Assembly (NCBI GenBank): GCA_025464025.1
Contig: JAODBP010000198.1
Location: 1-9,118, forward strand
Length of the DNA stretch: 9,118 nt
Direction: 5' to 3'
Origin: Actinomycetes bacterium
Lineage (GTDB): Bacteria > Actinomycetota > Acidimicrobiia > Acidimicrobiales > CADCSY01
Part shown: positions 1-9,118 of the stretch, in pieces
How the letters are laid out: each line of letters begins with the position of its first letter
Position numbering within the stretch: the stretch's first letter is position 1
Translations under genes and position numbers: made by a program
Notes under the pieces: model-generated
The model's input: the letters and a program-made list of their open reading frames with translations, nothing else
Told to the model about the DNA's origin: nothing
The model's database searches: none

Positions 1-426
1 GAAGAGACCGCCCTGGGAGTTCTGGTAGGCGACGATCGCCTGGGCACCGACGATGGCGCCCTGGAACAGGCCGGGAACCGGGCCGGACAGGGTCGAGACG
101 TTGCCGAGGGTCACCTGGTTGGCGGTCACGCCCACGTCGGTCGCACCTCCGTTGCCGCCAGCAGGCGCCTGGCCCGCAGCCGCACCTCCGGCGGGTGCTG
201 CCGCGCCCCCGGCTGCGGGCGCCGTCGTCGCCGTGGAACCAGCGACGGTCGTGGCCGTGCCCCCACCGGCATCGCCGGGACCGGCAGCGACGGCGTCACC
301 GTTGGTCGCCCCGCCGGACGCGCCGGCGGCCTGGACCTGCTCCTGGCTGACTCGAGCACCACATGCTGCCGCCAGCAACGTGAGAACGGTGAGGAACGTC
401 ACCAGACGAACCTGCTGCAAGTTCAC
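1..426 (-). CDS. ABC transporter substrate-binding lipoprotein, branched-chain amino acid type (3' end missing)
   Basis: Only the first 142 codons are visible; the gene runs off the left edge. The start is GTG at 426, with a GGGGG run upstream; no better in-frame start lies nearby, only a TTG about 16 codons earlier. Residues 1-22 form a lipoprotein signal with a hydrophobic stretch and lipobox LAAAC, Cys22 being the predicted lipidated residue. A linker rich in Ala, Gly, Thr and Pro follows (about 33-95). The start of a periplasmic-binding fold begins near residue 96 (TDVGVTANQ, then GNVSTLSGPVPGLFQGA). The 47 visible core residues match the neighbouring receptor at 595-2010 in 38 positions, so the two are tandem paralogues. 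The family captures small ligands outside the membrane and delivers them to a LivHMGF-type permease. The ligand is unknown; a steroid or side-chain acid is inferred from the neighbours. No permease or ATPase gene is in view. Confidence 0.85.
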   Translation of the reverse strand, partial: MNLQQVRLVTFLTVLTLLAAACGARVSQEQVQAAGASGGATNGDAVAAGPGDAGGGTATTVAGSTATTAPAAGGAAAPAGGAAAGQAPAGGNGGATDVGVTANQVTLGNVSTLSGPVPGLFQGAIVGAQAIVAYQNSQGGLF

Positions 427-484
427 GTTCGAAGACCCCCGGGCCGGGTTGGCGATGGACGGACCCGTCAACCTTCGGCGTCGA

Positions 485-594: not shown

Positions 595-2010
595 TCATCG
601 GTGGTACGTCCCATCGCAGCGGTAGGCGTTCGGCGGGGTGTCGAGGCGCTGGTACTTGCCGCCCCTGATGGTCGACACCACGTAGCAGCTCGGCGGCTTC
701 TTGATCCCCGGCCCACCGGGCGCCAGCAGGTTGTTGGCCGAGAAGTCGGTGACCTGCTTCAGAGCGGCGATGACGTCGGCCCGCTTGGCCTTGGGCCCGG
801 CCTTCTGCATGGCCTGGAACAGGAGGCGGCCGGCGGCCCACGAGTACATGGCGAAGGTGTCGGTCTTGAACCCGGGCTTCACCTTCTGCATCCACTCGTT
901 CATGAGCCGCACCTCGGGCACCGCCGCGGCGTCCTCCCCGCCGAAGAGCGAGAACACCGAGGCGCTGATCGTCCCCTCGACGGCCGCACCGGCCAGGGAC
1001 GAGAGGCTGGGCATGTAGTTGGCCACCAGCTGAGGCTTGAAGCCCTGCTGGGCCATGGCCTTGGCGATGCGGGCGGTGGTCTTGTCGTCGGTGGCGACGA
1101 GGTAGACGAGCTTCACGCCGCTCGACTTCATGCGCACGACGTCGGCGGTGAAGTCGGTCTCGGTCGCTTGGAAGCCACGCTCGTAGGCGAACTTCCACCC
1201 GACCGACTCGGCAGCCGCCCGGAACCGCATGGCGCTGATCTTCGCCGACGGGATGTCGCCGTAGAGCGTGCCGACCTTGGTCACCGCGTCCGGGTACTTG
1301 GCCTTGAACCAGAGGAACGGGCCGGTCGGCGCGCCCCGGACGTCCGACGGCGCCACCGCGAAGTTCGTCTTCAGCGCGCCGCGGCTGGCGTTGAGCGGCA
1401 CCGAGAGGTCGGGGATGTTCGACTTCGACAGGGCGCCCACGCCGGCGTCGTCGTAGAGCGAGAACGAGCCGAGGAAGGCGAAGGCCTTGCCGGCGAGCTC
1501 CTCCGTCGCCGCACGGTTCTGGCCGGTGTCGAACTGGTCGTCGCGGAACTCGAGCTTCAGCTTCCGCCCGAAGACGCCGCCCTGGCTGTTCTGGTAGGCG
1601 ATGAACGCCTGGGTGCCGAGCACGGCGCCCTGGAACAGGCCGGGCACCGGACCCGACATCGTCGACACGTTGCCGAGGAGGATCTGGTTCGCCGTGACCC
1701 CGACGTCGGTGGCACCGCCGTTGCCTCCCGTGGGCGCTGCCGTCCCCGTGTCGGCCGCGGCCGCCGCCGTCGGTGCGCCGTCACCAGCAGCCGAGGTCGG
1801 CGTCGTCCCCCCGGGCGACGCCGACCCGGCCGCGCCGACGCTCGACGACGAACCTGCGTCACCGGCGTCGGGCTGCCCCCCGGCCTGCTCGGTGGACGCC
1901 GAGGCGCCCGCTGCCTTGATCTGCTGCTCGCTGACCCTTGCGCCGCATGCGGATGCGACCAGTGCCAGCACCGTGAGCGCGACGAACCAGAGGTTCCTGC
2001 GCGTCCCCAT
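595..2010 (-). CDS. ABC transporter substrate-binding lipoprotein, branched-chain amino acid type
   Basis: Complete 471-residue extracytoplasmic receptor of the Leu/Ile/Val class (Peripla_BP_6-like). Residues 1-22 are a lipoprotein signal: basic MGTRRN, hydrophobic core, lipobox VASAC with Cys22 as the expected lipid anchor. About 65 residues of Ala/Gly/Ser/Thr/Pro linker follow (33-100), then the two-lobed binding fold from about 101. Typical features are GNVSTMSGPVPG near the N-terminus of the fold, AYQNSQGGVFGRKLKL, and a middle segment with TLYGD. The start is ATG at 2010 with GGGGG six bases upstream. It lies 140 nt behind ltp2 and is preceded by a perfect palindrome matching a KstR-like operator, which suggests induction by steroid intermediates independently of, or in addition to, the enzyme operon. 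Such receptors bind amino acids, aromatic acids, amides and other small ligands, so the sequence alone does not fix the substrate; steroid or side-chain-derived acid uptake is an inference from location. Confidence 0.9.
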   Translation of the reverse strand: MGTRRNLWFVALTVLALVASACGARVSEQQIKAAGASASTEQAGGQPDAGDAGSSSSVGAAGSASPGGTTPTSAAGDGAPTAAAAADTGTAAPTGGNGGATDVGVTANQILLGNVSTMSGPVPGLFQGAVLGTQAFIAYQNSQGGVFGRKLKLEFRDDQFDTGQNRAATEELAGKAFAFLGSFSLYDDAGVGALSKSNIPDLSVPLNASRGALKTNFAVAPSDVRGAPTGPFLWFKAKYPDAVTKVGTLYGDIPSAKISAMRFRAAAESVGWKFAYERGFQATETDFTADVVRMKSSGVKLVYLVATDDKTTARIAKAMAQQGFKPQLVANYMPSLSSLAGAAVEGTISASVFSLFGGEDAAAVPEVRLMNEWMQKVKPGFKTDTFAMYSWAAGRLLFQAMQKAGPKAKRADVIAALKQVTDFSANNLLAPGGPGIKKPPSCYVVSTIRGGKYQRLDTPPNAYRCDGTYHR

Positions 2011-2020
2011 GTGCGACCCC

Positions 2021-2046
2021 CGTACTTGGAACGTGTTCCAAGTACG
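2021..2046. promoter_or_regulatory. Perfect palindromic operator, KstR-like
   Basis: The left arm CGTACTTGGAAC (2021-2032) is followed by GT and then its exact reverse complement GTTCCAAGTACG (2035-2046), so both 12-bp arms match without a mismatch. The inner 14 bases (2027-2040) read T-GG-AAC-GT-GTT-CC-A, which fits the KstR consensus TnnAACnnGTTnnA as I recall it from mycobacteria and rhodococci. It ends 10 nt before the ATG of the receptor at 2010, a position where a bound TetR-type repressor would block transcription start or early elongation. No clear -35/-10 pair can be assigned around it. No regulator gene is in the window, so the cognate protein is inferred. Confidence 0.75.
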
Positions 2047-2150
2047 TTCGCCTCGAATGGGTCGGGTCCCTGCCCCCGGGTGCGACCGGGGTCACACCGG
2101 TGCGGTTACCGCCCCGTACGGTGCGCGGGGAAGGCCGCGAACCGGCAGCC

Positions 2151-3341
2151 TCAGCCGTCGGCGCTGAGGATGAGGCCGGAGGTCGGCACGCCGGTGCCGG
2201 CGGTGACGACCACGTTGGCCACGTCGGGCACCTGGTTGACCGAGGTCCCCCGCACCTGGCGCACGCCCTCGGCGATGCCGTTCATGCCGTGGAGGTACGC
2301 CTCGCCGAGCTGGCCGCCGTGGGTGTTGACCGGGAGGCCGCCGCCGATCTCGATGTTGCCGCCGGCCACGAAGTCGGGGGCCTCGCCCCGGCCGCAGAAG
2401 CCGAACTCCTCGAGCTGGCACAGCACGAACGGCGTGAAGTGGTCGTAGAGCACCGCGGTCTGGATGTCGCTCGGTCCCAGCCCGGCCTGCTCGTAGAGGC
2501 GGCGGGCGACGAGCCCCATCTCCGGGATGCCCACCATCTCGTCGTCGGGTCGGTAGAAGCTCGTCATCGAGAACTGGTCCTTCCACGACCCCTGGGCCAC
2601 CGAGGCGATGATCGCCGGGGTGCTCTTGAGGTCGCGGGCCCGCTCGGCCGAGGTGACGATGATCGCCTGGCCGCCGTCGGTCTCCTGGCAGCAGTCGAGC
2701 AGCCGCAGGGGGTTGACGATCCAGCGCGAGGACTGGTGGTCCTCCATCGTGATGGGCCGGTTGTAGAAGTGGGCGGCCGGGTTGTTCGAGGCGTGCTTCC
2801 GGTCGGCGACGGCGACGTGCCCGAACGCCTCGGTCGTGGCGCCGTAGACGTGCAGGTAGCGCTGGGCGAACATCGCCACCCACGACGCCGGCGTGACCTG
2901 GCCGTACGGCGAGGTCCAGGCGTACTGCGACTGCTCGGTCGACGACGTGGCCGGCGCGTCGTGGATGCCGGCGCCGAAGCGACGGCCCGACCGCTCGTTG
3001 AACGCCCGGTAGCAGCACACCACGTCGGCCACGCCGGAGGCGATGGCCATGGCGGCCTGCAGGATGGTGCCCCCGCCCGCGCCGCCGCCGTAGTGGATCT
3101 TGGAGAAGAGGTTGAGCTCCTTGATGCCGAGCTCCCGCGCCACGGCGATCTCGGGGTTGGTGTCCATGGTGAAGGTGACGAGCCCGTCGATCTCGCTCGG
3201 GCTGATGCCGGCGTCCTCGGCCGCCGCCGTCACGGCCTGCACGGCGAGCATCAGCTCGGAGCGACCGGAGTCCTTGGAGAAGTCGGTGGCCCCGATGCCG
3301 GCGATCGCCGTCTTGCCGCTGAGGAACCTCGTGTCGCCCAT
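2151..3341 (-). CDS. ltp2: Ltp2-like steroid side-chain retro-aldolase (SCP2-thiolase fold)
   Basis: 396 residues, close to the 386 recalled for M. tuberculosis Ltp2 (Rv3540c). The family has a thiolase fold but cleaves the 17-hydroxy C22 steroid-CoA to androstenedione and propionyl-CoA in the last step of sterol side-chain loss. The protein starts like lipid-transfer-type thiolases (KTAIAGIGATDFSK). The segment where a thiolase would carry its nucleophilic Cys instead reads KIHYGGGAGGG (81-91), with no Cys. Tyr299 (VLYDHFTP) and Tyr349 (GEAYLHGMN) are 50 residues apart, as are the catalytic Tyr294/Tyr344 I recall for the Thermomonospora enzyme. HGGQLGEAYLHG (341-352) is the C-terminal active-site loop. 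The ATG lies one base after the chsH1 stop, with AAGGAAGG upstream. It should need the DUF35 domain of ChsH2, two genes upstream in the transcript. It is the last gene of the enzyme run. Confidence 0.9.
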   Translation of the reverse strand: MGDTRFLSGKTAIAGIGATDFSKDSGRSELMLAVQAVTAAAEDAGISPSEIDGLVTFTMDTNPEIAVARELGIKELNLFSKIHYGGGAGGGTILQAAMAIASGVADVVCCYRAFNERSGRRFGAGIHDAPATSSTEQSQYAWTSPYGQVTPASWVAMFAQRYLHVYGATTEAFGHVAVADRKHASNNPAAHFYNRPITMEDHQSSRWIVNPLRLLDCCQETDGGQAIIVTSAERARDLKSTPAIIASVAQGSWKDQFSMTSFYRPDDEMVGIPEMGLVARRLYEQAGLGPSDIQTAVLYDHFTPFVLCQLEEFGFCGRGEAPDFVAGGNIEIGGGLPVNTHGGQLGEAYLHGMNGIAEGVRQVRGTSVNQVPDVANVVVTAGTGVPTSGLILSADG

Positions 3342-3342
3342 G

Positions 3343-3729
3343 TCAGCCTTCCTTCGTGAGGACGACGGTCCCCGTGACGTGGTCGCCGAGCGAGTTGGAA
3401 CCGACGACCTTCACCGTGATCTCGTCGCCGTCGACCTCGGTCACCTCGCCCTTCAGCGTCATGGTGTCGCCCGGGTAGTTCGGGGCGCCGAGGCGGATGG
3501 CCACCTTCTTGAGCCGGGCGGACGGCCCGGCCCAGTCGGTGACGAAGCGGCCGACGTAGCCGTTGGTGGTGAGGATGTTCATGAAGATGTCGGGCGACCC
3601 CCGCTCGACGGCGAGCGTCGGGTCGTGGTGCACGTCCTGGTAGTCGCGCGACGCGATGGCCGTGGCCACGATCGTCGTGCGAGTGAGCGGGATGGCCAGC
3701 TCGGGCAGCTGCTCTCCGACAGTCGTCAC
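3343..3729 (-). CDS. chsH1: ChsH1-like MaoC enoyl-CoA hydratase subunit (catalytic)
   Basis: 128 residues, one hot-dog domain, matching the length of Rv3541c (129). The GTG start at 3729 overlaps the chsE1 stop by four bases (GTGA) and has a strong GGAGG at 3734-3738, four bases upstream; this fixes the start. The hydratase dyad is present as Asp29 and His34 in SRDYQDVHHDP, the same numbers I recall for the M. tuberculosis subunit. The rest follows the single-domain MaoC pattern: FMNILTTNGYVGRFVTDW near the middle and GDTMTLKGEVTEVDGDEI in the C-terminal half. It would pair with ChsH2 to hydrate the C17-C20 double bond of the steroid-CoA produced by ChsE1-ChsE2. It is translationally coupled to chsE1 and sits one base before ltp2. 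Confidence 0.9.
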   Translation of the reverse strand: MTTVGEQLPELAIPLTRTTIVATAIASRDYQDVHHDPTLAVERGSPDIFMNILTTNGYVGRFVTDWAGPSARLKKVAIRLGAPNYPGDTMTLKGEVTEVDGDEITVKVVGSNSLGDHVTGTVVLTKEG

Positions 3730-4778
3730 TTTGCCTCCGCGAGCGCTGCACCCAGGACCGACAGCTGCTGCGCCGGCCCGCCCAGGGTCTGTTCGATGGT
3801 CTTGCCCCACAGGAAGTAGCGGTGGACGGGGTAGTCGATGTCGGCTCCCATCCCACCGTGGAGGTGCTGGGTGGCGTGCACGACCCGCTGGCCGCCGTCC
3901 GACGCCCACCACTTGGCGACGAGCGCCGCCTTGGTCGCGTCGAGGCCTTCGTCGAGTCGCCAGGCCGCCTGCCACAGGGTGGCGTCGATGGCGCGGATGT
4001 CGATGTAGGCGTCGGCCGCCCGCAGGGCCACGCCCTGGTTGGTCGACAGGGGCCGGCCGAACTGGTTGCGGTTCGACGTGTACTCGGCGGCCATGGCCAG
4101 CGCCGCCTCGCACACGCCGACCTGGAGAGCAGCGAGGCCGGTGCGGTACCGGTCGAGCAGCCACGCCGCGACGCGGTCGTCGCCCAGGCGCTCGGCCGGC
4201 GTGCCGGCGAACGTGAGGTGGGCGACCTTCGAGCGGTCGGTCGCCACCGCGACCTGACGCTCGGCGGCGGCCGGGTCGACGAGGTAGACGCCGTCGTCGG
4301 CCGACACCAGCACCCGGTCGGCCAGGTGGCCGTAGGGCACGCTGAGGACGGTGCCGGTGAGGGCGCCACCCGAGGCGGTGACCGGCGGCGTGGCCGGGTG
4401 GCGGTCGAGGGCGAGGCTGAGCACGACGTCGCCGGCGATCACGCCGGGCAACCACGCCGCCTGCTGCTCGGCCGTGCCGTGCTCGGCGATGGCGAGTGCG
4501 GCGACCACCGTCGTGACCAGCGGCACCGGGGCCACGACCCGGCCCTGCTCGCGCAGGACGAGGGCCAGCTCGACCATGCCGAGCCCACCGCCGCCGTGGG
4601 CCTCGGGCAGCACCAGGCCGAGCAGGTCGGCCTTGGCCAGCTCGCTCCAGAGCGTGCGGTCGATGCGGTCGTCGGAGGCCTCGATCTCCTTGACCCGGGC
4701 CACGTCGGCCTGGCCCTGGAAGATCTGGGCGGCCAGGTCGCGCACGGCGTCCTGGGTCTCGTCGAAGGTGAAGTCCAT
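3726..4778 (-). CDS. chsE1: ChsE1-like acyl-CoA dehydrogenase subunit (FadE28 type, non-catalytic partner)
   Basis: 350 residues, near FadE28 (339) and shorter than ordinary acyl-CoA dehydrogenases. The N-terminal helical domain begins MDFTFDETQDAVRDLA; the C-terminal helical domain carries RNQFGRPLSTNQG (237-249) and HLHGGMGADIDYPVHRY (305-321), typical of this subunit. Both places that can hold the catalytic Glu are empty: the position matching Glu241 of the partner aligns with Tyr211, and the MCAD Glu376 position has Leu/Gly. The middle beta domain is abbreviated, and the usual EPEAGSD-type FAD loop is not recognisable. This is what is known of the ChsE1 half of the alpha2beta2 enzyme, which contributes structure while ChsE2 supplies the base. 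The ATG overlaps the chsH2 stop by one base (TGATG), with only a weak GGGG upstream, so translation probably depends on coupling. In M. tuberculosis this gene sits before fadE29; here it lies between chsH2 and chsH1. Confidence 0.87.
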   Translation of the reverse strand: MDFTFDETQDAVRDLAAQIFQGQADVARVKEIEASDDRIDRTLWSELAKADLLGLVLPEAHGGGGLGMVELALVLREQGRVVAPVPLVTTVVAALAIAEHGTAEQQAAWLPGVIAGDVVLSLALDRHPATPPVTASGGALTGTVLSVPYGHLADRVLVSADDGVYLVDPAAAERQVAVATDRSKVAHLTFAGTPAERLGDDRVAAWLLDRYRTGLAALQVGVCEAALAMAAEYTSNRNQFGRPLSTNQGVALRAADAYIDIRAIDATLWQAAWRLDEGLDATKAALVAKWWASDGGQRVVHATQHLHGGMGADIDYPVHRYFLWGKTIEQTLGGPAQQLSVLGAALAEAK

Positions 4779-5788
4779 CAGGCCCCAGCGCTTCCCTGGG
4801 ACTGCGCCCCAGACCCATCTGCGCCGGGCTCGCTGGCGCTCGCGCCGTCGCCGACCTGCTTCGCACGTCGAAACTGCGGGATGGTGAGCTCGTCGTCGAA
4901 CGTGACGATCTCGGCCACGACGGGCATGCCGATCACGACGTCGGCCGGGTCGACGTCGAGGAGGTTGGACACCAGGCGGGTGCCCTCCTCGAGCTCGACG
5001 AGCACGACGGGCAACGGGTAGTCGAACGACGGCACCTGCGGGTGCTCGACGATGACGAAGGAGTAGACGGTGCCGCGGCCGCTGGCCTCGACGGTGTCCC
5101 ACTCGAACGAGTGGCACTCGGCGCAGGCCGGGCCGGGCGGGTGGCGCAACGTGCCGCAGTCCGTGCACCGCTGGATGAGGAGCTTGCCGTCCTGCAGCCC
5201 GTCGAACCACCACTGCGTGTCGCGGGTGGTCGGCGGGCGGGGCCGCAGCGGGCGGTCCTGCTTCGCCGGAGCGGCGCCCTTGCCCGTGCCCGGCTTGAAC
5301 TTGAGCACCCGGAACAGGTGGGTGCCGACGAGCTCGCCGTCCTGGTCGCGGTACTCGTCGCGGGTCGTGACGAAGTGGCCGATGCCGAGGCCGGTCTGCT
5401 TCTCCTCCGACACCGACTCGAGCACGCCGGTGACCGTGACCCGGTCGCCGGGCACGAGGTACCGGAGGTACTCCTGCTCGCAGTTGACGGCCACCGTCGA
5501 CGAGAAGCCGGCGGCGTCGAGCAGCTTCAGCGCGTCGCCCCAGCCACCCGACGGACCGTCGCCCCGCTCGAGCCCGGCCATCTGCCACGTCTGGAGCATG
5601 GTGGGCGGGGCCACGATGCCGGGGTGGCCGGCGGCCTTGGCTGCGGCGTCGTCGACGTAGATCGGGTTCTTGTCGCCGAGGGCCACGACCATGTGGCGGA
5701 TCATCGGCGCGTTGACCTCGTCGAGCCCGATGGTCGGCTCGCCGCTGACCGAGCCGACCAGTGCCTGGAGGTCGTCGTAGAGAGACAC
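4778..5788 (-). CDS. chsH2: ChsH2-like MaoC-DUF35 fusion: hydratase subunit plus Ltp2-docking domain
   Basis: 336 residues in two parts. Residues 1-165 are a MaoC hot-dog domain; residues about 190-310 are a DUF35 domain with a zinc ribbon, Cys208, Cys211, Cys222 and Cys225 (CxxC-x10-CxxC), followed by an OB-like part. This is the architecture of Rv3542c (311 residues). In the MaoC half the dyad motif reads GDKNPIY: Asp39 stays but the His five residues on is Tyr44, so this subunit should not catalyse alone and would complement ChsH1. The DUF35 domain is known to bind Ltp2 and support aldol cleavage. The last 25 or so residues are a Gly/Ala/Ser/Gln-rich tail of unclear use that overlaps the chsE1 start. 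The start chosen is GTG at 5788, five bases after GGGAAGG and two bases after the chsE2 stop. A GTG at 5794 is possible but has no room for a binding site. Confidence 0.9.
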   Translation of the reverse strand: MSLYDDLQALVGSVSGEPTIGLDEVNAPMIRHMVVALGDKNPIYVDDAAAKAAGHPGIVAPPTMLQTWQMAGLERGDGPSGGWGDALKLLDAAGFSSTVAVNCEQEYLRYLVPGDRVTVTGVLESVSEEKQTGLGIGHFVTTRDEYRDQDGELVGTHLFRVLKFKPGTGKGAAPAKQDRPLRPRPPTTRDTQWWFDGLQDGKLLIQRCTDCGTLRHPPGPACAECHSFEWDTVEASGRGTVYSFVIVEHPQVPSFDYPLPVVLVELEEGTRLVSNLLDVDPADVVIGMPVVAEIVTFDDELTIPQFRRAKQVGDGASASEPGADGSGAQSQGSAGA

Positions 5789-5790
5789 GG

Positions 5791-6951
5791 TCACCTTCCC
5801 TGTCGGGCCATCTTGAGGCCGGCCCAGGCGACGATCTCGCGCTGGACCTCGTTGACACCGCCGCCGAACGTGTTGATCTGGGCCGATCGGCTGGCCCGCT
5901 CGAGCCGACCACCGAGCACGGCGCCCGGTTCGCCGACGCCGAGGTAGCCGACGGGTCCGACGATGTCGAGCAGCAGGCGGTAGGCCTGGATGTGGGTCTC
6001 GGTGCCGAACACCTTCACCGAGCTGGCGTCCTGGGGCCGGAGCGAGCCGTCGTCGACCTTGCGGGCCATCTGCCAGTTGAGGAGCCGCATGGCCTCGAGC
6101 CGCGCGTACGCCTCGGCCAGGTTGCGCTGCACCCAGGGCAGCTCGATGAGCCCGTTCTCCCGAGTCCACCGCTCCACCGCGTCGTACAGCTCGCTGGTCT
6201 CGCCCCCGAGGGCGGCCAGGCCGACCCGCTCGTGGTTGAGCTGGTTGGTGATGAGGCGCCAGCCCTCGTTCTCGCCGGCGACGACGTTCTCGACCGGCAC
6301 CCGCACGTCGACGTAGTACGACGCCGCCGTCTTCGTGTCGCCCACCGTGTGGATCAGCGTGGCGCTGAAGCCGGGCGTCGAGGTCGGCACGAGGATGATC
6401 GAGATCCCCTTGTGCTTCGAGACCTCGGTGTTGGTGCGGCACGCCAGCCACACGTAGTCGGCCTGGTCGGCCCCCGACGTGAAGATCTTCGAGCCGTTGA
6501 TCACGTACTCGTCGCCGTCGCGCACGGCCCGGGTCTTGAGCGACGCCAGGTCGGTGCCGGCCTCGGGCTCGGTGTAGCCGATGGCGAAGTTGATCTCACC
6601 CTGGAGGATGCCGGGGAGGAACCGCTGCTTCTGCTCCTCCGAGCCGAACTGCATCAGCGTCGGGCCGACGGTGTTGATGGTGACGAACGGGAACGGCGCC
6701 TTGGCCCGCCACACCTCGTCGAAGAAGATGAACTGGTCGGTGGGCGGTCGACCCTGCCCGCCGTACTCCTTGGGCCACCCGATGCCGAGCCAGCCGTCGG
6801 CGCCCATCTTCCGCACGAGCCGCCGGTAGACCGGGCCGCCCTCCGGATCGCCTTCGAGCTCGGCACGCGCTTCCGGCGTGAGCAGGTCGGCGAAGTAGGC
6901 GCGCAGCTCCTTGCGGAGCGCGAGCTGCTCTGAGGTCTCTTCGAGGTGCAC
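5791..6951 (-). CDS. chsE2: ChsE2-like acyl-CoA dehydrogenase subunit (FadE29 type, catalytic)
   Basis: 386 residues against 387 recalled for M. tuberculosis FadE29. It oxidises the C22 steroid side-chain CoA thioester together with ChsE1, passing electrons from FAD to an electron transfer flavoprotein. The FAD/substrate loop YTEPEAGTDLASLKTRA (126-142), INGSKIFTSG (151-160) and the C-terminal AQINTFGGGVNEVQREI (357-373) are all present. The catalytic base is Glu241 in NHERVGLAALGG, the position recalled for FadE29; the alternative MCAD-type Glu near the C-terminus is replaced by Gly. The start is GTG at 6951 behind a run GAGGGGGGA. An unusually long 45-nt gap separates it from the upstream dehydrogenase, whereas the next gene follows after two bases. 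The main alternative, a general short-chain acyl-CoA dehydrogenase, is unlikely given the neighbours. Confidence 0.9.
   Translation of the reverse strand: MHLEETSEQLALRKELRAYFADLLTPEARAELEGDPEGGPVYRRLVRKMGADGWLGIGWPKEYGGQGRPPTDQFIFFDEVWRAKAPFPFVTINTVGPTLMQFGSEEQKQRFLPGILQGEINFAIGYTEPEAGTDLASLKTRAVRDGDEYVINGSKIFTSGADQADYVWLACRTNTEVSKHKGISIILVPTSTPGFSATLIHTVGDTKTAASYYVDVRVPVENVVAGENEGWRLITNQLNHERVGLAALGGETSELYDAVERWTRENGLIELPWVQRNLAEAYARLEAMRLLNWQMARKVDDGSLRPQDASSVKVFGTETHIQAYRLLLDIVGPVGYLGVGEPGAVLGGRLERASRSAQINTFGGGVNEVQREIVAWAGLKMARQGR
5794..5800 (-). promoter_or_regulatory. Ribosome binding site deciding the chsH2 start
   Basis: GGGAAGG lies inside the final codons of chsE2 and five bases before the GTG at 5788. 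It supports that start over the GTG at 5794-5792, which would overlap the site itself. Confidence 0.55.
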
Positions 6952-6980: not shown

Positions 6981-7000
6981 AAACTACCGCATCAAACTAC
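6981..7000. repeat. Short direct repeat in the only sizeable gap of the enzyme run
   Basis: AAACTAC occurs at 6981-6987 and again at 6994-7000, 13 bp apart, in an AT-rich patch that covers the stop codon of the dehydrogenase at 6997-8211 and part of the spacer before chsE2. On the minus strand this reads GTAGTTT twice. It could mark an internal promoter or protein site for the five igr-type genes, but no convincing -35/-10 pair was seen. Confidence 0.25.
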
Positions 7001-8211
7001 TTGCGGCTGCCGGCCAGCTCCTTGAACGGGATGTCCTTGTCGACCCGCGGCTCGGCCGGCAGGCCCAGCACCCGCTCGCCGATCGTGTTGCGCTGGATCT
7101 GGTCGGTGCCGCCACCGATCTTCGACGACCACTGGTTCAGGAACGACAGGACCCAGTGGCCCTCGTCGATCCCGTCGGCCTTGGCGAGCATCCCGGCCGA
7201 GCCCATGATCGACATGACCAGGTCGCCGGTGAGGCTCTGGTGCTGGGAGATGAAGAGCTTCAGCGCCGATGCCCCGGGACCGGGCAGCTTGCCCTGCGAC
7301 GACGCCGTCTGGACCTGCAGGTTCATGTAGCGCATGACCTGGATCCGGGTGTGGGCCCGGGCGATGTCCTGGCGGATGACCGGGTCCTGGTCGCAGCCGC
7401 ACTGCTTGGCCAGGGCGAGGAGCTGGGCCGTGGTCGTGCCGTGGCCCGAGCCACCGATGAGGGTGCGCTCGTTGGCCAGGGTCGTGTGGGTCGGGCCCCA
7501 GCCGGCGTTCACCTGGCCGACCACGTTCTCGGCCGGGATCCGCACGTCGGTGAGGAAGACCTCGTTGAAGTGGGCGTGGCCGGTGATCTGCACGAGCGGG
7601 CGGACCTCGATGCCCGGCGTGCGCATGTCGACCAGGAAGTACGTGATGCCCTTGTGCTTCGGGGCGTCGGGGTCGGTGCGGGTGAGGAGGATCCCCCAGT
7701 CGCTGTGGTGGGCACCGGAGTTCCAGACCTTCTGGCCGTTGACGACGAACTCGTCGCCGTCCTTGAAGGCCCGGGTCTTCAGCCCGGCGAGGTCGGAGCC
7801 GGCCTCGGGCTCGCTGAAGAGCTGGCACCACACCTCCTCGCCGCGGATCATGGCCGGGAGGTAGCGCTGCTTCTGCTCCTCGGTGCCGTGGGCGATGAGC
7901 GTCGGGCCGCACATGCCGATGCCGACGGCGAAGGCGCCGGTCGACACGTCGTAGCCGGCGGCCTCCTGGTTGAAGATCGACTGGTGCCAGCCGCTGAGAC
8001 CCCGGCCGCCGTACTCGACGGGCCAGGTGATGGCGCCCCAACCGCCCTCGTAGAGGGTGTGCTGCCAGCGCTTGCAGTTCTCGACGTAGTCGGGGTGCTC
8101 GGAGTTGCGCGACCAGTCGTTGGGGCCGCCGCGGGGCTTGGCGTTGGCCGCCAGCCACTCGCGCACCTCGGCGCGGAAGGCGGCGTCCTGCGGGGAGTCC
8201 TCGAAGTCCAT
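6997..8211 (-). CDS. Acyl-CoA dehydrogenase, probable steroid or fatty acyl side-chain enzyme
   Basis: 404 residues and a complete fold. N-terminal domain MDFEDSPQDAAFRAEVREWL; FAD loop FSEPEAGSDLAGLKTRA (132-148); VNGQKVWNSGAHHSDW (157-172); C-terminal SSKIGGGTDQIQRN (362-375). Glu248 in LANERTLIGG occupies the same site as Glu241 of ChsE2, and the MCAD-type Glu is Gly. The base placement resembles FadE26 (ChsE4, Glu247 as I recall), which acts on longer sterol side chains with a partner subunit. No partner for this protein is in the window, so it may be a homotetramer or pair with a subunit encoded elsewhere; which FadE it corresponds to cannot be settled here. ATG at 8211 is chosen because the family N-terminus starts there and GAGGAGAAGAGG lies just upstream; an open frame running to 8424 is out-of-frame coding sequence of the dehydrogenase upstream. 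It follows that gene by 14 nt. Confidence 0.85.
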   Translation of the reverse strand: MDFEDSPQDAAFRAEVREWLAANAKPRGGPNDWSRNSEHPDYVENCKRWQHTLYEGGWGAITWPVEYGGRGLSGWHQSIFNQEAAGYDVSTGAFAVGIGMCGPTLIAHGTEEQKQRYLPAMIRGEEVWCQLFSEPEAGSDLAGLKTRAFKDGDEFVVNGQKVWNSGAHHSDWGILLTRTDPDAPKHKGITYFLVDMRTPGIEVRPLVQITGHAHFNEVFLTDVRIPAENVVGQVNAGWGPTHTTLANERTLIGGSGHGTTTAQLLALAKQCGCDQDPVIRQDIARAHTRIQVMRYMNLQVQTASSQGKLPGPGASALKLFISQHQSLTGDLVMSIMGSAGMLAKADGIDEGHWVLSFLNQWSSKIGGGTDQIQRNTIGERVLGLPAEPRVDKDIPFKELAGSRK

Positions 8212-8225
8212 GGGTCCTCTTCTCC

Positions 8226-9118
8226 TCAGGTCCCGTGCACCGGGAAGGGGCTGCGGGCCTTGCTCAGCAGGTCGGTGACGACGGGCCCGAGCTCGCTCGG
8301 CTCCCAGCGGTCGCCCTTGTCGATCTGGGGGCCGCGGTCCCAGCCCTCGGCGACCATGATCAGGCCGCCTTCGAGCTCGAACACCCGGCCGGTGACGTCC
8401 CTCGACTGCTCGGAGCCGAGCCACACCACGAGGGGCGAGACGTTCTCCGGGGCCATGGCGTCGAAGGCGCCGGCCTCGGGCTTGGCCATCATGTCGGCGA
8501 AGGCCCCCTCGGTCATGCGGGTGCGCGCCGCCGGGGCGATGGCGTTGGCGGTGATGCCGTAGCGGCCCATCTCGGCGGCGGCGACCAGGGTGGCGGCGGC
8601 GATGCCGGCCTTGGCCGCCGAGTAGACGGTCTGGCCGATCGAGCCGTGGAGCCCGGCGCCCGAGCTGGTGTTGATGATGCGGCCCTGGGGGTCCTCACCC
8701 GCCTTGGCCCGCTCCCGCCAGTGGTTGGCGGCGTGGCGCATGGTGGCGAGGGTGCCCTTGAGGTGGACGGCGAGCACGGCGTCGATCTCGTGCTCCTCCA
8801 TCGACACCGCCATCCGGTCTCTGACGATGCCGGCGTTGTTCACCAGCACGTCGAGCTTGCCGAACGTGTCCACCGCGGTGGCGATGATGTTGGCGGCGCC
8901 GTCCCAGCTGGAGACGTCGTCGGCGTTGGCGACCGCTTCGCCGCCCATCCCTCGGATGGCGTCAACCACCTCGCCGGCCGGTCCCGAAGCACCGCCGCTG
9001 CCGTCGAGCTCGGCCCCCACGTCGTTGACCACGACCTTGGCGCCTTCGGCGGCGAAGGCCAGGGCGTGCGCCCGCCCGAGGCCGCGCCCGGCGCCGGTGA
9101 CGACGACGACCCGACCCG
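8226..9118 (-). CDS. Short-chain dehydrogenase/reductase, 3-hydroxyacyl-CoA or hydroxysteroid dehydrogenase type (5' end missing)
   Basis: About 297 codons are open to the right edge; probably only some six to eight N-terminal residues are missing, since the visible frame begins GRVVVVTGAGRGLGRAHALAF, the usual beginning of the Rossmann fold. Full length would be about 303, near Rv3548c (304 as recalled), an SDR close to the igr genes in M. tuberculosis. Visible SDR marks are TGAGRGLG (dinucleotide binding), a DDV acidic turn, VNNAG, INTSSGAG with the active-site Ser, and YSAAK at 8610-8624 with the catalytic Tyr and Lys. The C-terminus with VAEGWDRGPQIDKGDRW is typical of the HSD17B4-like group that oxidises 3-hydroxyacyl-CoA esters. 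It could serve an earlier round of side-chain beta-oxidation or a ring hydroxyl; ChsB1 (Rv3502c) is the other possible match. The true start and the operon promoter lie outside the window. Confidence 0.85.
   Translation of the reverse strand, partial: GRVVVVTGAGRGLGRAHALAFAAEGAKVVVNDVGAELDGSGGASGPAGEVVDAIRGMGGEAVANADDVSSWDGAANIIATAVDTFGKLDVLVNNAGIVRDRMAVSMEEHEIDAVLAVHLKGTLATMRHAANHWRERAKAGEDPQGRIINTSSGAGLHGSIGQTVYSAAKAGIAAATLVAAAEMGRYGITANAIAPAARTRMTEGAFADMMAKPEAGAFDAMAPENVSPLVVWLGSEQSRDVTGRVFELEGGLIMVAEGWDRGPQIDKGDRWEPSELGPVVTDLLSKARSPFPVHGT

What the first reader, a model, noticed from the sequence alone, without database searches (positions are those of the whole stretch)
2021..2046. Perfect 26-bp KstR-like palindrome in front of an ABC receptor gene
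Two 12-base arms match without error around a GT centre, and the core (2027-2040) fits TnnAACnnGTTnnA, the consensus recalled for the cholesterol repressor KstR. It stands next to five genes whose mycobacterial counterparts belong to the KstR regulon. The palindrome is seen directly; the regulator is inferred. If correct, KstR-type control here extends to a branched-chain-type receptor rather than only enzymes and Mce4.
Basis: partly seen in the sequence, partly recalled or inferred. Interest (0 to 1): 0.8.

Follow-up and report, generated by a model that had tools for sequence, protein, structure and literature searches.

The report
Steroid repressor site before transporter gene
A perfect DNA palindrome in an actinobacterium looks like the switch of the steroid-breakdown repressor KstR and sits in front of the receptor gene of a nutrient importer; the same pairing in about a dozen relatives points to a possible steroid importer other than the known Mce4.

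Summary
The palindrome is real: CGTACTTGGAAC-GT-GTTCCAAGTACG, 2021-2046. Its 14-base core scores like published KstR sites (p about 2e-8 per position), lies between an Ltp2-type steroid side-chain gene and an ABC receptor gene, and ends 10 bases before the receptor's ATG. The window's own genome is not held. The nearest relative (MAG RYN_34; Ltp2 93-94% identical) keeps the core at the same place, has a KstR orthologue with a site before it, and a perfect site before CYP125. In 30 receptor loci from 30 genomes of its class, 7 carry a KstR-type site upstream (decoy motifs: mean 0.08). In 12 held genomes a KstR-type site stands before the receptor or its operon, mostly with branched-chain-type (Liv) permease and ATPase genes. 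MCE proteins exceed the cut-off in 3 of 20 KstR-bearing genomes examined. Best reading: KstR represses this receptor, and a Liv-type importer, perhaps for steroids or steroid-derived acids, belongs to the KstR regulon here. Shown: motif, position, conservation, recurrence. Inferred: binding, ligand, transport. The full 26-base symmetry is not conserved; the core and CGTAC boxes are. A new variant of a known regulon, making an open uptake question testable.

The parts
2021..2046 (.). Perfect inverted repeat, 12-base arms around GT
2027..2040 (.). KstR-type operator core TGGAACGTGTTCCA
   Evidence: only match in window; matrix score 23.5, p 1.8e-8 per position; core GGAACnnGTTCC kept in MAG RYN_34
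595..2010 (-). Liv/HAAT-type ABC receptor (lipoprotein by eye, Peripla_BP_6), the gene behind the operator
   Evidence: Pfam PF13458, E 1.3e-35; AlphaFold2 model pLDDT 77.7 and Foldseek matches to solute-binding proteins
1..429 (-). Second receptor of the same family, cut by the window's start; start codon is my reading (GTG 427-429)
   Evidence: ORF; 80% identical to the first receptor over window 1-108; no site of score 15 or more before it
2151..3341 (-). Ltp2-type steroid side-chain lipid-transfer thiolase/aldolase
   Evidence: NCBIfam PRK07855 664.8 bits; PDB 6ok1_A E 2.7e-174
3343..3732 (-). MaoC-like protein, ChsH1-type by position
   Evidence: Pfam PF01575; lies between Ltp2 and ChsH2 genes
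3726..4778 (-). Acyl-CoA dehydrogenase-like protein
   Evidence: no Pfam match at 0.001; NCBIfam acyl-CoA dehydrogenase models, all below cut-off
4778..5788 (-). ChsH2 (hydratase domain plus DUF35)
   Evidence: Pfam zf-ChsH2 and OB_ChsH2_C; PDB 6ok1_B, 4wnb
5791..6951 (-). Acyl-CoA dehydrogenase
   Evidence: Pfam
6997..8211 (-). Acyl-CoA dehydrogenase; ChsE-like is recalled knowledge of entries 6wy8 and 4x28
   Evidence: Pfam; PDB Tcur3483 6wy8 and 4x28 best
8226..9116 (-). Short-chain dehydrogenase, cut by the window's end
   Evidence: NCBIfam PRK07791 473.9 bits; in G003 the homologue (68%) stands directly behind a KstR-type site and kstR
2103..2120 (-). Second conserved block CGTACGGGGCGGTAACCG between Ltp2 gene and operator, role unknown
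   Evidence: identical in MAG RYN_34

Best explanation
The palindrome is a KstR operator. A KstR dimer bound just ahead of the start codon blocks expression of the receptor gene, and of anything downstream of it in the same transcript, until a steroid-pathway acid or acyl-CoA releases it. The receptor is the solute-binding part of a branched-chain-type (Liv/HAAT) ABC importer that in this class (taken as Acidimicrobiia from the record title of the nearest relative) belongs to the KstR regulon; it most likely brings in steroids or water-soluble steroid-derived acids. Shown: the site, its match to published KstR sites, its core conserved in the nearest relative, KstR orthologues in relatives with sites at their own promoters, and recurrence of KstR-type sites at Liv receptor genes and operons. 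Inferred: binding, the inducer (by analogy with mycobacteria), the ligand and the direction of transport.
For: Matrix score inside the range of published sites. Core kept in MAG RYN_34, with nearly the same spacing to ATG. KstR orthologues: G002 best PDB match KstR E 3.9e-28, with TGGAACACGTTCCA 21 bases upstream; G001 E 5.4e-33, with TAGAACACGTTCCT between it and a divergent gene that I read as fadD. G001 also has TAGAACGTGTTCTA before a CYP125 (best named wild-type match E 1e-116). 7 of 30 receptor loci taken only by receptor score carry a site of score 15 or more within 500 bases upstream (one of the 7, G001, was known before); decoy matrices mean 0.08, none of 2000 reached 7; at cut 16.5, 6 loci against 0.06, reached by 2 of 2000 decoys. 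A KstR-like protein (E 1e-15 or better) is in 19 of 21 strong-receptor genomes against 74 of 374 others, Fisher p 3.5e-11, kinship not corrected (the strong cut, E below 1e-40, is mine). Exact TRGAACNNGTTCYA: 76 sites (reversed-pattern control 21) in 20 KstR-bearing genomes, 11 (control 16) in 20 without a match. In G003 the window's gene order (SDR to Ltp2 to receptor) continues into LivHM, LivG and LivF behind a KstR-type site and kstR. G267, G248, G289, G391, G398 and G219 have site, receptor and Liv genes; G188 and G114 have site, two dehydrogenases, receptor and Liv genes.
Against: No binding data; in the published table one matching site (Rv0223c) did not bind in gel shift. The window's own kstR cannot be checked. 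The relative's site scores lower (16.5) with G for T at one end. In the sister clade of the window's receptor no site lies directly upstream in L002, L005 or L136 (the last has one at operon level); L004 and L006 are cut short upstream. 23 of the 30 loci have no such site, though L031 has almost no upstream DNA. On the receptor tree the label needs at least 8 changes, so it is no simple inherited trait, although more clustered than shuffles (2 of 500 as low). G001 shows no excess of motif matches by count, and G003, G289 and G100 have no exact match although KstR-bearing. No sigma-70-like promoter was found around the site. The ligand is not identified.
Confidence: 0.83

Rival explanations
1. 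It is an operator of another TetR-family repressor with a similar half-site, for example a KstR paralogue for fatty acids or bile acids, not KstR itself.
For: G001 alone has 38 TetR_N matches; some genomes hold four or five KstR-like proteins at E 1e-15 or better, for example G024 and G088; the TGG..CCA edges and outer CGTAC boxes differ from the commoner TAGAAC..GTTCTA.
Against: TGG or CCA edges occur in published KstR sites, and TGG..CCA exactly at the G002 kstR promoter; in G001 the one match at E 1e-15 or better carries its own site.
Confidence: 0.12
2. The site is a KstR operator, but the transporter carries something only loosely linked to steroids, such as amino acids or short branched acids.
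For: The receptor fold is the amino-acid/aromatic-acid type; close solved relatives bind leucine, alanine or aromatic acids by their titles.
Against: The receptor sits in a side-chain operon in the window and G003, and near P450, kstR or dehydrogenase genes in several other genomes; 4n03, among the nearest solved relatives, is titled a fatty acid ABC transporter protein.
Confidence: 0.3
3. The palindrome is an RNA hairpin or terminator between two operons, with no repressor.
For: It lies in the gap between two same-strand genes.
Against: No terminator-like site found in 1900-2300; no Rfam match at gathering scores; the core is conserved while the full pairing is not; the same type of core occurs at kstR, P450 and dehydrogenase promoters.
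Confidence: 0.03
4. Chance palindrome.
Against: p 1.8e-8 per position and conservation in a relative.
Confidence: 0.01

Closest known systems
KstR regulon of Mycobacterium (Kendall 2007, PMC1995591: passages and section 10 read)
   Same: 14-base palindrome TnnAACnnGTTnnA, TetR repressor, side-chain genes incl. ltp2, and a site at Rv3545c (CYP125 by recall)
   Different: There the importer in the regulon is Mce4; here a Liv-type ABC receptor, in a class where MCE proteins were found in 3 of 20 KstR-bearing genomes examined
Mce4 steroid importer (PMC4810484, PMC6678751: passages read)
   Same: Importer under KstR control
   Different: Mce4 is MCE/YrbE-based. [quoted passage not shown] later papers, however, name mce genes in Nocardioides simplex and Saccharopolyspora hirsuta (passages)
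CamABCD, ABC transporter of Rhodococcus jostii RHA1 for cholate metabolites (PMC8399759, PMC6678751, PMC6498646: passages read; original paper not held)
   Same: ABC transporter that takes back steroid breakdown products
   Different: Its subunit type and its regulator were not seen in any passage read; a KstR homologue is encoded in the RHA1 cholate cluster
Branched-chain-type genes braF and livF of Rhodococcus equi DSSKP-R-001 (PMC7471831, one table passage) and HAAT-family receptors of Pseudomonas putida SJTE-1 (PMC5290480, passages)
   Same: Liv/HAAT-type parts that rise on steroid: braF and livF on estrone and ethinylestradiol (not significantly on estradiol); HAAT receptors 2.5- and 7.7-fold on estradiol
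   Different: No KstR site or receptor kinship was tested there
4n03, Thermomonospora curvata solute-binding protein titled fatty acid ABC transporter protein
   Same: Same fold; among the best sequence and fold matches
   Different: About 19% identity; ligand of our protein unknown

Membership tests
KstR operator | 14-base palindrome TnnAACnnGTTnnA | tested here: met
   matrix score 23.5
KstR operator | Intergenic, near genes of lipid/steroid metabolism or transport | tested here: met
   between Ltp2 stop and receptor ATG
KstR operator | A KstR repressor in the same genome | not testable with these tools
   own genome not held; orthologues seen in relatives G001, G002 and G003
KstR operator | Site conserved at orthologous place | tested here: met
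   one relative, L001; its score drops to 16.5
KstR operator | Overlaps the promoter -10 as at mycobacterial kstR | tested here: inconclusive
   no sigma-70-type promoter found
KstR operator | Binding by KstR, released by inducer | not testable with these tools
   bench work
KstR2 operator | AnCAAGnnCTTGnT | tested here: not met
   none in the window with up to 1 mismatch
Liv/HAAT-type receptor | Peripla_BP_6 domain and lipoprotein N-terminus | tested here: met
   domain; lipobox only read by eye
Liv/HAAT-type receptor | Cognate permease and ATPases nearby | tested here: inconclusive
   window ends inside the next receptor; present in G003 and other relatives
Mce4 importer | MCE (PF02470) proteins | tested here: not met
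   none among the window's 9 scanned proteins; no match in G001; above cut-off in 3 of 20 KstR-bearing genomes (YrbE not searched)
Intrinsic terminator | GC stem-loop with T run | tested here: not met

The most novel reading that the evidence does not exclude
In Acidimicrobiia a Liv/HAAT-type ABC importer, switched by KstR, takes up steroids or steroid-derived acids and stands in for Mce4, whose MCE proteins were not found in 17 of 20 KstR-bearing genomes examined.
Probability: 0.45. Interest if true: 0.75.

Novelty: new variant of a known kind. Interest (0 to 1): 0.62.

Why it matters
How actinobacteria without Mce4 take up steroids is an open question: PMC4810484 (2016; passages) says uptake systems outside mycolic-acid bacteria 'have not been identified', though mce genes have since been named in two other genera. 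A KstR-linked Liv-type transporter, seen in 12 held genomes, is a concrete candidate that a binding assay on one purified receptor can test. It would also extend the KstR regulon to a class for which no paper naming both KstR and Acidimicrobi- was found in the library searched (most subscription papers are not held).

Tried and rejected
Whole-genome scan of the window's own genome: not possible. One-mismatch motif counts in G001, G002 and G003: below the reversed-pattern control (25, 7, 17 against 38, 33, 31), so counts at that looseness prove nothing; matrix scores and gene context were used instead. TTGGAACnnGTTCCAA with up to 1 mismatch in four relatives: none, so the longer palindrome is not a shared motif. 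Family-level search of Ltp2: only G001 has the close orthologue; 6 of 12 genomes have any match. A weak site (13.5) near a TetR gene in G001 C219 lies inside a predicted frame and was dropped. KstR2 operator, terminator and Rfam RNA: no match. Receptor tree: my first label test compared only 15 of 55 rows and told nothing about site against no site; redone with 53 rows (two cut-short loci left out) it needs 9 changes against 13.3 in shuffles, 2 of 500 as low; for direct sites alone 8 against 10.2, 19 of 500 as low. So control is not of single origin by this tree, but is somewhat clustered. Loci L139-L142 were widened because sites had been seen in L008, L012, L019 and L020, and the regions were picked mostly for KstR or site nearness; these are not an unbiased sample, so only the 30 loci are used for the decoy test. 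The 20 genomes 'without KstR' are my pick from those with no match. Gene starts in relatives come from my own crude caller and are approximate.

Full report
Observation. The sequence at 2021-2046 reads CGTACTTGGAAC GT GTTCCAAGTACG, two perfect 12-base arms. Its core TGGAACGTGTTCCA (2027-2040) is the only match in the window to TnnAACnnGTTnnA, expected 0.01 times by shuffling. That consensus is the published KstR core (PMC1995591; passages and section 10 read). A symmetrised weight matrix from the 47 sites of that paper's Table 3 (many of them orthologous pairs, so not independent) gives the window's core 23.5 bits, near the middle of the published sites' own scores, p about 1.8e-8 per position at 69% GC; the next best place in the window scores 8.3.

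Surroundings. The genes named here run on the minus strand. From 9116 down: short-chain dehydrogenase, two acyl-CoA dehydrogenases, ChsH2, a third dehydrogenase-like protein, a MaoC-type protein, Ltp2. Ltp2 and ChsH2 are confirmed by their best solved relatives, 6ok1 chains A and B, and the ChsH1/ChsH2 entries 4w78/4wnb; the dehydrogenase at 6997-8211 best matches Tcur3483 and then 4x28. By established knowledge of these families this is the operon for the last round of sterol side-chain removal. Then comes the palindrome, ending 10 bases before the ATG of a Liv/HAAT-type receptor (595-2010), followed by a second receptor of the same family that runs off the window.

Conservation. The own genome is not held. 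One scan of the genome collection found six loci with relatives of the receptor. In MAG RYN_34 (L001 = G001 contig C160) Ltp2 is 93-94% identical and the gap before the receptor holds CGTACGGGAACGCGTTCCACGTACG at the same place, with GGAACnnGTTCC and both CGTAC boxes kept but the outer symmetry broken by a one-base deletion. A second block, CGTACGGGGCGGTAACCG (window 2103-2120, minus), is also identical; its role is unknown.

Regulator. G002 encodes a TetR protein whose best solved match is KstR (5cw8, E 3.9e-28), with TGGAACACGTTCCA 21 bases before its start. G001 has an orthologue (KstR, E 5.4e-33, 50 bits above the next protein, 3bjb) with TAGAACACGTTCCT between it and a divergent gene that I read as fadD without a family search. 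G003 has one (47% to that of G002) beside the same operon as the window's. In G001 the perfect TAGAACGTGTTCTA lies before a CYP125, TGGAACACGTTCCA before a cut-off gene that I read as an aldehyde dehydrogenase, and TGGAACGCGTTCTC before an acyl-CoA dehydrogenase pair. Of the ten best-scoring of the 25 one-mismatch hits in G001 (16.5 or more), five are at catabolic, kstR/fadD or receptor promoters; C242 and C349 lie inside predicted genes, C26 inside a predicted gene of unsure start, C299:4865 follows a reductase-like gene, and C345 was not examined.

Recurrence. The receptor was searched in 395 genomes of the class of G001 (taken as Acidimicrobiia from the record title of RYN_34); 235 have some match. 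The 30 loci returned are the best hits of 30 genomes. 7 have a site of score 15 or more within 500 bases upstream of the match (one, G001, was known beforehand; without it 6 of 29); column-permuted decoy matrices give 0.08 on average and none of 2000 reaches 7. At cut 16.5 it is 6 loci, reached by 2 of 2000 decoys, some decoys being near-copies of the real matrix. 23 of 30 have none; L031 has almost no upstream DNA. A KstR-like protein (E 1e-15 or better) is in 93 of the 395 genomes, in 19 of the 21 with a receptor match better than 1e-40 and in 74 of the other 374; kinship and genome completeness are not corrected for, and the cut was set by me. Exact TRGAACNNGTTCYA occurs 76 times in 20 KstR-bearing genomes (reversed pattern 21) and 11 times in 20 genomes without (reversed 16); G003, G289 and G100 have none.

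Operons. In G003 one stretch runs SDR, two dehydrogenases, ChsH2, dehydrogenase, ChsH1, Ltp2, receptor, LivHM fusion, LivG, an unnamed protein, LivF; a site (score 16.8) lies between kstR and the SDR, and none lies directly before the receptor. G248, G289, G398, G267, G391 and G219 have a site before the receptor and Liv permease/ATPase genes; G213 a site before a receptor pair with LivHM; G210 a weak one (15.7); G001 as above. G188 and G114 have site, two dehydrogenases, receptor(s), LivHM, LivG, LivF. That makes 12 held genomes, 11 of the class draw and G003. On a tree of 55 receptor copies 11 have a direct site and 4 an operon-level one; the tree needs at least 8 changes of this label, fewer than in all but 2 of 500 shuffles. 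Either control was gained several times or it is old and often lost. The window and RYN_34 form one pair; in their sister group of five, three have no direct site (one of them, G003, has an operon-level site) and two are cut short.

Uptake question. MCE proteins exceed the Pfam cut-off in 3 of 20 KstR-bearing genomes (G289, G391, G002; one more, G111, has a sub-threshold match) and give no match in G001; completeness of these genomes is not told. G289 and G391 have both MCE proteins and the KstR-linked Liv genes, so the two do not exclude each other. PMC4810484 (2016; [quoted passage not shown] against this, later papers name mce genes in Nocardioides simplex and Saccharopolyspora hirsuta (passages). 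Hints that Liv-type parts respond to steroids: braF and livF rise strongly on estrone and ethinylestradiol, not significantly on estradiol, in R. equi DSSKP-R-001 (one table passage of PMC7471831); two HAAT receptors rise on estradiol in P. putida SJTE-1 (PMC5290480 passages). No paper in the library held KstR, branched-chain amino acid, ABC transporter and steroid together, nor Acidimicrobi- with KstR. Two papers that mention Acidimicrobi- once beside cholesterol degradation (PMC6208644, PMC11061730) were seen in a listing only.

Ligand. The AlphaFold2 model (pLDDT 77.7; residues 22-97 below 50) matches solute-binding proteins for amino acids and aromatic acids and 4n03, titled a fatty acid ABC transporter component. 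This allows but does not show a hydrophobic acid as ligand.

Verdict. Observation confirmed; KstR reading supported with the reservation that the window's own regulator cannot be seen. The 26-base length should not be over-read; the 14-base core is the shared signal. The larger finding, a KstR-linked Liv-type importer in this class, is a new variant of a known regulon and directly testable.

Noticed in passing
window 2103-2120 (-): Block CGTACGGGGCGGTAACCG is identical in MAG RYN_34, upstream of the operator; possible promoter part or second regulator site.
   Followed up: partly
window 2081-2096 (-): TGTGACCCCGGTCGCA resembles the recalled CRP site TGTGA-N6-TCACA with one mismatch; the relative has only a weaker form. 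Read by eye, no call tested it.
   Followed up: no
L136:7360-7920, L140:12672-13259, L142:5535-5876, L263:9926-10288, L271:10890-11297, L187:5242-5661: A small, membrane-like protein without any Pfam match over cut-off recurs next to the Liv genes (7 invariant columns among six); possible accessory subunit of this transporter.
   Followed up: partly
window 1-429 and 595-2010: Two receptors of one family in tandem; only the first has an operator. More than one receptor copy also occurs in the G131, G219, G213 and G114 loci.
   Followed up: partly
L136:8630-9904, L006:3881-5203: A protein of about 420-440 aa sits between LivG and LivF in G003 and in RYN_50 (35% identical); the G003 copy has no Pfam match.
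   Followed up: partly
window 2021-2026 and 2041-2046: The outer CGTAC boxes are kept in RYN_34 but absent from the 14 other KstR-type sites printed; their use is unexplained.
   Followed up: partly
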